From: Deltaproteobacteria bacterium
GTDB lineage: Bacteria; Desulfobacterota; DSM-4660; Desulfatiglandales; HGW-15
DNA: 57,205 bases
Assembly: GCA_020060215.1 (NCBI GenBank)
Contig: JAGVAP010000085.1
Span: 1 to 57,205, forward strand
Direction: 5' to 3'
The position numbers and the translations under genes are program-made. Shown here in pieces: positions 13,855-14,466 of this stretch. Position 1 is the stretch's first letter. Each line of letters opens with the position of its first letter. A model generated the notes under the pieces. That model was given only the letters and a program-made list of their open reading frames with translations, did no database searches and was not told where the DNA came from.

Positions 13855-14466
13855 TCAAAATGCGTCCTCTACCTTCCAGACCTCCCATACCTTTCCCACG
13901 AGGTCCGGACCCGGTTTGAGGGTCGGCTTTCCGGGCTGCCATCCTGTCGGAGTCGCCTCGGCGCCATTGGTCTTGCGGACGTGCTGAAAAGCCTGGACCT
14001 GGCGGATCAGTTCGCTGACGTTCCTCCCCACGGGCGGGGTGATGATTTCGATCCCCTGCACGATTCCGTCCGGGTCGATGATGAAACGTCCGCGCATCTC
14101 GACCCCCGCATTCTGGTCATACACCCCATAGATCCTGCCGATATTCCCGGGCCCGTCCGATAGCATGGGAAAGGGAACGCCCCCCTTCACCATCTTCGAA
14201 AGCTCGTTGTCCTGCCACATCTTGTGGACGAAGTGGCTGTCCACGCTGATGGAAAGGACCTGGACCCCCAGGGCCTCAAGTTCCGCATTCCTGGACGCAA
14301 CTGCGGCCAGCTCCGTGGCTCAGACAAAGGTGAAATCCCCCGGATAGAAACAGAGCACTACCCACTTTCCGAGGTAATCCGAAAGCTTCACCTGCCCGAA
14401 CTGACCTGCCTGATATGCGGGCGCCTCGAAATCCGGCGCCTTCTGACCCACTCTGACCACGGACAT
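13855..14466 (-). CDS. Selenocysteine-containing peroxiredoxin (AhpC/Prx1 type), UGA = Sec49
   Basis: Thiol/selenol peroxidase of 203 aa if UGA is decoded. The reading frame is [16 protein letters not shown]...[13 protein letters not shown], then TGA at 14320-14322, then [15 protein letters not shown]... in the same frame to the stop at 13855. The Prx1/AhpC active site is FTFVCPTEL, so the UGA replaces the peroxidatic cysteine exactly and the protein on both sides is intact. A hairpin matching bacterial SECIS geometry starts 9 nt after UGA. The C-terminal region ([14 protein letters not shown]) lacks the resolving cysteine of the EVCPAxW motif; the only cysteine is C39. The start at 14466 follows GAGAAGGAGG. 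A second start at 14574 (MKELQIGC), also with AAAGGAGG, would add 36 residues. It is downstream of katG and a PerR-like gene on the same strand. Confidence 0.9.
14291..14310 (-). promoter_or_regulatory. Candidate bacterial SECIS element
   Basis: On the minus strand the 20 nt CTGGCCGCAGTTGCGTCCAG begin 9 nt after the UGA. They fold into CUGG/CCAG and CGC/GCG helices separated by a C-U mismatch, with an AGUU apical loop containing the expected G-U. The apical loop lies about 18-21 nt after UGA, within the range bound by SelB in known bacterial selenoprotein mRNAs. Assigned by inspection, not folded computationally. Confidence 0.65.

What the first reader, a model, noticed from the sequence alone, without database searches (positions are those of the whole stretch)
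13855..14466. Peroxiredoxin with in-frame UGA at the catalytic cysteine (selenoprotein)
The frame reads [27 protein letters not shown], where AhpC/Prx1 proteins have FTFVCPTEL. The UGA replaces the peroxidatic cysteine and the protein on both sides is intact, so ordinary gene calling would split it into two fragments. Selenocysteine peroxiredoxins are known in some anaerobes (for example PrxU), but this gene's link to KatG and PerR makes a peroxide-defence unit of special interest.
Basis: partly seen in the sequence, partly recalled or inferred. Interest (0 to 1): 0.8.

Follow-up and report, generated by a model that had tools for sequence, protein, structure and literature searches.

The report
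Selenium peroxiredoxin with two translation starts
This gene makes a peroxide-destroying enzyme that carries selenium at its active site, a known kind of protein, and it appears to be translated from two separately conserved start points, giving a longer and a shorter form of the enzyme.

Summary
In detail: an in-frame UGA (14322-14320, minus strand) stands at the peroxidatic cysteine of an intact AhpC/Prx1-type peroxiredoxin. All 80 relatives kept have UGA there. A SECIS-type hairpin follows it, and most near relatives' genomes carry selA, selB or tRNA-Sec. The protein belongs to the known PrxU family (NF040737, 411 bits, cut-off 270), so as a selenoprotein it is ordinary.

Two things were missed. 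First, the gene starts at 14574, not 14466: a 36-residue N-terminal tail holds a conserved cysteine, while the usual C-terminal resolving cysteine is lost. The tail motif is as constrained as the core (pN/pS 0.20 and 0.18). So prxU probably makes two isoforms, with and without a tail cysteine that may resolve the oxidised selenocysteine. I found no description of this in the library searched.

The parts
13855..14574 (-). prxU, long frame (239 aa with UGA read as Sec; own stop TGA 13857-13855)
   Evidence: NF040737 peroxi_PrxU 410.8 bits, residues 6-236 on profile 2-232 of 233
14582..14589 (-). Shine-Dalgarno AAAGGAGG of the long start, 7 nt before ATG 14574-14572
   Evidence: sequence; for relatives
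14467..14574 (-). codons of the N-terminal tail (36 residues, [18 protein letters not shown]...), conserved Cys8 at 14553-14551
   Evidence: C8 the same in 40 of 40 aligned (a set chosen for having a tail Cys); Cys in 138 of 138 tails defined without looking at Cys; pN/pS 0.20; tail predicted disordered
14471..14478 (-). internal Shine-Dalgarno AAGGAGGT, 5 nt from the end of GGAGG (14472) to the internal ATG 14466-14464
14320..14322 (-). UGA read as the peroxidatic selenocysteine (residue 49 of the short, 85 of the long form)
14291..14310 (-). SECIS-type hairpin, apical loop AGUU 17 nt after the UGA
   Evidence: seven stem pairs formed in 88-100% of 135 distinct sequences, three of them with clear two-sided exchanges; in the window itself it is the best fold of the 27-nt stretch (-10.1) but not of the 51-nt stretch
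14350..14352 (-). codon of the invariant Cys ten residues before the Sec (Cys39 short / Cys75 long)
14628..16820 (-). katG catalase-peroxidase, 53 nt upstream of prxU, same strand
   Evidence: PF00141
16899..17342 (-). Fur-family regulator (PerR-like by context only)
   Evidence: PF01475, 114 bits

Best explanation
The gene is prxU, a selenocysteine peroxiredoxin that reduces peroxides (family and fold shown; activity inferred from the family). UGA is decoded as Sec through the hairpin just behind it. The same mRNA has two in-frame starts, each with its own Shine-Dalgarno. The long form (239 aa) carries a flexible tail with a conserved Cys; the short form (203 aa) lacks it. Both starts are under selection (shown by comparison), so both forms are probably made (inferred; not measured). 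Since the C-terminal resolving Cys of AhpC/Prx1 is gone, the likeliest cycle is: Sec reacts with peroxide to selenenic acid; in long subunits the tail Cys closes a Sec-S bond that a thioredoxin-like partner opens; short subunits work as one-Sec enzymes needing an outside thiol or a long neighbour in the ring (inferred, about even odds).
For: Sec: TGA in 80 of 80 kept relatives and in 67 of 71 matches in 198 genomes of one phylum; SECIS-type stem; selA/selB/tRNA-Sec in relatives; NF040737. Internal start: Shine-Dalgarno >=6 nt in 74 of 81 genes against a synonymous-recoding mean of 24.6 and maximum of 35 in 300 trials; 134 of 141 tail-bearing genes against 35 of 1685 in-frame and 15 of 1732 out-of-frame ATG/GTG codons and 34 of 2817 equally wide windows of the same genes. 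Different peptides and phases of the frame encode it (KEV, KEE, QEV, RGG, GGG), and in 7 of 8 genes of one sample GTG, another initiator, stands in place of ATG. Long start: its own Shine-Dalgarno of >=6 nt in 121 of 138 genes with such a start (>=4 was required), tail motif pN/pS 0.20 against 0.18 for the core and 0.68 just before the internal ATG, distance between starts 32 to 41 codons in 121 genes. Tail Cys: in 138 of 138 tails defined without looking at Cys and in 85 of 88 database proteins with 20 or more residues there, including all 10 such Cys versions. C-terminal Cys absent in 116 of 121.
Against: No expression, mass-spectrometry or ribosome data exist here; selection on both starts does not prove that both are used in one cell. 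In two later samples the original rule (ATG, spacing 4-10) held in only 6 of 15 and 1 of 8 genes; 13 of 15 and 8 of 8 needed a rule widened after looking (GTG allowed, spacing to 12); over all genes the original rule gives 116 of 141. GTG is also a common Val codon there (83 of 187 Val codons), so the GTG switch is suggestive only. Three tail-bearing genes (L202, L204, L209) show no ATG with Shine-Dalgarno for the long form. 4 of 121 tail-bearing genes still have the C-terminal Cys, and a no-tail Sec clade lacks it too (L140, L142, L144, L146), so tail gain and Cys loss are not strictly coupled. A second invariant Cys ten residues before the Sec is a rival resolver. The window's own 51-nt fold prefers another hairpin over the SECIS-type one. 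The source genome is not held, so its Sec machinery is untested.
Confidence: 0.8

Rival explanations
1. Only the long form is made. The internal Shine-Dalgarno is a relic of an older start, or a by-product of Lys/Glu-rich linker codons, or slows ribosomes ahead of the UGA.
For: The linker is Lys/Glu-rich, so AAGGAG arises easily; the synonymous null still gives 24.6 of 81. The NCBI model describes the long form.
Against: 134 of 141 against 2.1% and 0.9% of control codons and 1.2% of control windows; encoded in several phases and peptides. The one Cys paralogue with DNA in hand, which has no UGA to pause for, still has GGAGG (5 nt, below my 6-nt rule) and ATG (L221). [quoted passage not shown]
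Confidence: 0.12
2. Only the short form is made; the upstream frame is an untranslated or regulatory leader.
For: The internal site is about as strong as the upstream one, and no-tail relatives show no other start than the equivalent site (L124, L127, L130). Recalled, not checked: the first purified PrxU was described as about 22 kDa, the size of the short form.
Against: Tail motif under protein-level constraint like the core, its own Shine-Dalgarno, and an open frame although the length varies.
Confidence: 0.07
3. The resolving residue is the invariant Cys ten residues before the Sec, and the tail Cys does something else (partner docking, mixed disulfide, sensing).
For: That Cys is present in 121 of 121 tail-bearing genes and 40 of 40 aligned, and also in four no-tail genes with a C-terminal Cys (L079, L124, L127, L130).
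Against: It accompanies a C-terminal resolving Cys in those four no-tail genes, so it is not simply a replacement for it. It lies in a predicted core strand (residues 71-77). Distances were not measured: the tool gives no coordinates.
Confidence: 0.3
4. Pseudogene, sequencing error, or a genome with UGA reassigned to an ordinary amino acid.
For: Protein databases list relatives with Trp at this place (99 of 115 with the motif), most likely because gene callers read UGA as Trp.
Against: Same codon in 80 of 80 kept relatives, strong constraint downstream (pN/pS 0.18), SECIS-type hairpin, and TGA ending the katG and prxU frames.
Confidence: 0.02

Closest known systems
PrxU, selenocysteine peroxiredoxin (NCBIfam NF040737; Eubacterium acidaminophilum enzyme, Sohling et al. 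2001, seen only as a reference entry)
   Same: Sec at the peroxidatic position in PxxxTxxU; match over nearly the whole profile including the tail
   Different: I found no description of two starts or of the tail Cys. The 2001 paper was not available to read, and that the NCBI family name refers to that enzyme is recalled.
Sec-containing Prx of deltaproteobacteria in selenoproteome surveys (PMC1794560, PMC1088965, PMC13188914; passages seen)
   Same: Same kind of protein and lineage: Sec-Prx is listed for Syntrophobacter fumaroxidans, Syntrophus aciditrophicus and Geobacter metallireducens
   Different: The passages I saw do not discuss starts or tail; whether the listed genes are PrxU with a tail was not checked
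Typical 2-Cys AhpC/Prx1 (PDB 1we0, Prx2 7kj1; TIGR03137)
   Same: Sequence relationship over the whole core and the active-site surroundings
   Different: Sec for Cys, no C-terminal resolving Cys, extra N-terminal tail; AhpC model below cut-off (188 of 272 bits)
Bacterial N-terminal proteoform pairs from alternative in-frame starts (Salmonella, PMC11005335, start of abstract and passages seen)
   Same: One gene, two in-frame starts, conservation of start codon and Shine-Dalgarno used as evidence
   Different: The words peroxiredoxin and AhpC do not occur in its main text; here the pattern extends across several phyla

Membership tests
PrxU (NF040737) | Score above the curated cut-off of 270 bits | tested here: met
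   410.8 bits long form, 392.1 bits short
PrxU (NF040737) | Sec or Cys in PxxxTxx[U/C] | tested here: met
   PGDFTFV-UGA
Selenoprotein | In-frame UGA conserved in homologues | tested here: met
   80 of 80; 67 of 71
Selenoprotein | bSECIS hairpin just downstream | tested here: met
   SECIS-like hairpin (loop of 3-8 nt in the right place with an early G) in 117 of 136 against 52% in the synonymous null; stem pairs with two-sided exchanges; in the window only in a local fold
Selenoprotein | selA, selB, selC, selD in the same genome | tested here: inconclusive
   No source genome held; found in most relatives for SelA, SelB, tRNA-Sec; SelD not searched
Selenoprotein | Selenium in the protein | not testable with these tools
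   Needs 75Se labelling or mass spectrometry
Typical 2-Cys AhpC/Prx1 | C-terminal resolving Cys | tested here: not met
   ATPTGW in place of xCPxxW; absent in 116, present in 4, unclear in 1 of 121 tail-bearing genes
Dual-start gene | Two in-frame starts, each with a conserved Shine-Dalgarno | tested here: met
   under the caveat on the widened rule
Dual-start gene | Both products present in cells | not testable with these tools
   Needs N-terminomics or Ribo-RET

The most novel reading that the evidence does not exclude
PrxU is a two-proteoform selenoenzyme: one mRNA makes tail-bearing subunits, whose N-terminal Cys resolves the oxidised Sec, and tail-less one-Sec subunits. Their ratio in the ring would set whether the enzyme acts as a thioredoxin-fed peroxidase or as a peroxide sensor or relay. 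The arrangement is kept across several phyla, with the internal start codon itself drifting between ATG and GTG.
Probability: 0.35. Interest if true: 0.65.

Novelty: new variant of a known kind. Interest (0 to 1): 0.5.

Why it matters
If both forms are made, the family model describes only one of them, and the catalytic cycle of PrxU has to be worked out with the tail Cys in place. It would also be an unusually clear and widely conserved case of a bacterial enzyme made in two lengths, with a simple test: a single reporter construct or one N-terminal proteome of a cultured PrxU-bearing bacterium such as Desulfatibacillum alkenivorans.

Tried and rejected
Lipoprotein signal for the tail Cys: rejected by eye, no hydrophobic stretch before it (reasoning; no tool run). 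A shared docking tag: a degenerate DNA pattern for the tail motif in 26 genomes gave 29 matches in 25 of them; most are presumably prxU itself, but the places were not checked one by one, and the one in G004 cannot be (its prxU tail reads KPIG), so this is inconclusive. Conserved operon partner: none; the commonest neighbour cluster occurs in 16 of 71 loci. Window scan for tRNA-Sec or other RNA families: one tRNA-Val only. Structure of the long form: mean pLDDT 82.6, tail residues 7-12 and 18-37 below 50, so no statement on Cys-Sec distance. Tight linkage of tail gain to loss of the C-terminal Cys: not strict. tRNA-Sec over 198 genomes was uninformative as a contrast: 182 pass the gathering score, and so do 5 of 14 controls.

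Corrections and rows dropped before counts. Of the 151 sources (window and L001-L150) scanned, L097, L147, L148 and L150 lacked the search motif; 147 genes became 140 after removing duplicates. One of the 71 matches (G152) was not fetched. One search put L073 among the no-tail genes because its long start failed the Shine-Dalgarno filter. The 81 genes include two without a tail (L077, L079) and two cut by a contig end (L033, L066). The 121 tail-bearing genes were selected for a Cys in the tail, so the Cys counts are partly by definition; one search repeats the count without that. The 3 of 88 database tails without Cys are P0011, P0026 and P0048. In one search the best of several codons near the core start is taken per gene while controls are counted per codon; the window control (34 of 2817) meets this. 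In one search, 5 of 120 listed proteins lacked the motif and were left out; by the printed stretch two of them (P0015, P0085) have Cys and one (P0037) Trp at the site. The two later samples come from the phyla of L025 and L038, which a few genes of the first set already represented.

Papers: PMC13188914, PMC8533274, PMC1088965, PMC1794560 and PMC11005335 passages only; PMC5100845 abstract and outline; Sohling 2001 only as a reference entry. That the two-start arrangement is not described rests (open-licence PMC library only; listings).

Full report
What is there. On the minus strand at 13855-14574 lies a 239-codon frame with one internal TGA at 14322-14320. The open frame continues to an ATG at 14574 preceded by AAAGGAGG at a 7-nt spacing. 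The product is an AhpC/Prx1-type peroxiredoxin (best solved relative 1we0, E 2.6e-47) with UGA at the peroxidatic cysteine: PGDFTFV-UGA-ATEL.

Is it a selenoprotein? Their record titles name deltaproteobacteria of several groups, Nitrospiraceae/Thermodesulfovibrio, spirochaetes, Anaerolineae, Actinobacteria, Calditrichota, Cloacimonadota, Krumholzibacteriota and others (many are metagenome bins). In 198 genomes of one phylum 65 have a match at 1e-50, with 71 matches, of which 67 contain one TGA and four none. A hairpin with apical loop AGUU or GGUC stands 17 nt after the UGA. Seven stem pairs are formed in 88 to 100% of 135 distinct sequences (an eighth in only 26%); three of them show clear two-sided exchanges, for example G-C 83, A-U 34, C-G 10, U-A 6 at the third pair. 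Sliding the partner strand by 1 to 3 drops the mean over eight pairs from 0.86 to 0.33-0.66. Part of this conservation is protein coding, so the synonymous control matters: a SECIS-like hairpin is found in 117 of 136 genes against 52% in recoded sequences. In the window itself the hairpin is the best fold of the 27 nt around it (-10.1 kcal/mol), but a different hairpin wins when 51 nt are folded. No genome is held for the window. In the 40 genomes of L001-L040 SelB passes its cut-off in 33 (2 of 14 control genomes do). In the 12 nearest, SelA passes in 10 and a tRNA-Sec of at least 70 bits is present in 10. Of the six nearest, G002, G003 and G006 have all three over the cut-offs; G004 has SelA, tRNA-Sec and SelB pieces at contig ends; G001 has SelB and a 56-bit tRNA-Sec; G005 has tRNA-Sec only (metagenome bins, probably incomplete). 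UGA seems an ordinary stop nearby, since the katG and prxU frames both end in TGA.

Which family? NCBIfam PrxU NF040737 matches at 410.8 bits over residues 6-236 (cut-off 270), including the N-terminal tail. The AhpC model stays below its cut-off. A Sec-Prx was reported in 2001 (reference entry) and Sec-Prx is listed for deltaproteobacteria in a 2006 survey (passages of PMC1794560) and for the Sargasso Sea. So the selenoprotein claim alone is not new.

What is different from textbook AhpC/Prx1. The C-terminal resolving cysteine is missing (ATPTGW here; absent in 116, present in 4, unclear in 1 of 121 distinct tail-bearing genes). The tail carries a Cys: in 40 of 40 long forms aligned, in two tail subtypes GC[AG][RK]PTG and CVxPAxGPI. 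As those genes were chosen for a Cys in the tail, I repeated the count without that: of 162 distinct genes 138 have an upstream ATG with a Shine-Dalgarno in open frame, and all 138 tails contain Cys; of 88 database proteins with 20 or more residues there, 85 do. A Cys ten residues before the Sec is present in all 121. Among 115 database proteins with the motif, 14 have Cys in place of Sec; the 10 of these with a tail all keep the tail Cys and lack the C-terminal one. The tail therefore goes with the family, not with Sec as such.

Two starts. In the first 81 genes a Shine-Dalgarno of at least 6 nt lies upstream of the corresponding codon in 74; synonymous recoding with each gene's own codons gives a mean of 24.6 and never more than 35 in 300 trials. 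With duplicates removed and more genes, the count is 111 of 121 at spacing 4-10, against 7 of 610 other in-frame ATG codons and 2 of 889 out-of-frame ATGs of the same genes. I then looked at two further samples, from the phyla of L025 and L038. By the same rule only 6 of 15 and 1 of 8 passed. Inspection showed Shine-Dalgarno sequences one codon further away in the first and GTG in place of ATG in 7 of 8 of the second; allowing GTG and spacing to 12, a rule fixed after looking, gives 13 of 15 and 8 of 8, and 134 of 141 over all tail-bearing genes, with controls at 35 of 1685 in-frame and 15 of 1732 out-of-frame codons and 34 of 2817 nine-codon windows under the same rule; the original rule gives 116 of 141 over all against 10 of 720 and 3 of 1014 (which replaces after a counting error was found). 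Of the 7 failures, 4 keep GGAGG and 3 read AAGGGGG. The sequence is encoded through different peptides and in different phases of the frame (AAG GAG G.., GGA GGT), so it is the nucleotide signal that is kept.

The long start is real too. Its ATG has its own Shine-Dalgarno, at least 6 nt in 121 of 138 (at least 4 was required); three tail-bearing genes (L202, L204, L209) show none with ATG. The tail motif shows pN/pS of 0.20 over all pairs of 87 genes, the core 0.18, the five codons before the internal ATG 0.68 (pairs are not independent). The distance between the starts varies from 32 to 41 codons, always in frame (an open frame is required by the class definition). This speaks against a role tied to the UGA.

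How it most likely works. Shown: the Sec codon, its hairpin, family and fold, selection on both starts. Inferred: both forms are translated; peroxide oxidises Sec; in long subunits the flexible tail (pLDDT below 50 for residues 7-12 and 18-37) brings its Cys to the Sec and makes a bond that thioredoxin or a similar partner opens; short subunits need an outside thiol or a neighbouring long subunit. The rival resolver is the Cys at minus ten; I give the tail about even odds. A monomer model without coordinates cannot decide it.

Surroundings. Upstream on the same strand are katG (53 nt away) and a Fur-family gene. In 71 loci KatG occurs in 7 and the Fur family in 8, the window included; a pyridine-nucleotide-disulfide-oxidoreductase-like cluster (named by eye from its first residues) occurs in 11, upstream in 10. 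A PerR-controlled peroxide unit is plausible here but not conserved.

Verdict. The gene is a new member of a known selenoprotein family whose real extent and second start were missed. The conserved dual start with an on/off tail cysteine is the part worth a specialist's time, and the reason for calling it a variant rather than just a member.

Noticed in passing
L222 (G001:C174:5000-8200), L223 (G009:C239:1500-4500), L224 (G006:C13:1000-7200): A tRNA-Sec gene of unusual shape (anticodon UCA, 53-56 bits) beside (L222, L223) or on the contig of (L224) a SelB-like gene; these three genomes also hold another, full-length SelB, and G009 and G006 a tRNA-Sec of over 70 bits.
   Followed up: partly
L225:719-810 (G004:C128): A tRNA that fits the tRNA-Sec model (53 bits) but has the Cys anticodon GCA, on a contig that ends within a SelB-like gene: possibly one of the tRNA-Sec-like Cys tRNAs (recalled, not looked up).
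   Followed up: partly
L220, L221 (G713:C1): One genome with both a Sec and a Cys PrxU, each with the tail and an internal GGAGG plus ATG.
   Followed up: partly
L140, L142, L144, L146: Four Sec-Prx genes with no conserved tail, no C-terminal resolving Cys and Tyr at minus ten: one-Sec peroxiredoxins as they stand.
   Followed up: no
database proteins P0002-P0121: 99 of 115 entries with the motif show Trp at the Sec position, probably UGA read as Trp by gene callers; such entries hide selenoproteins.
   Followed up: no
window 9643-12560: Mu-type transposase gene (PF09299) and a small HTH regulator in front of the glutamate dehydrogenase gene; the transposase frame overlaps the start of the dehydrogenase frame.
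   Followed up: no
window 20342-23029: One frame with DHH/DHHA1 phosphoesterase, CBS and poly(A)-polymerase/tRNA-nucleotidyltransferase-head domains.
   Followed up: no
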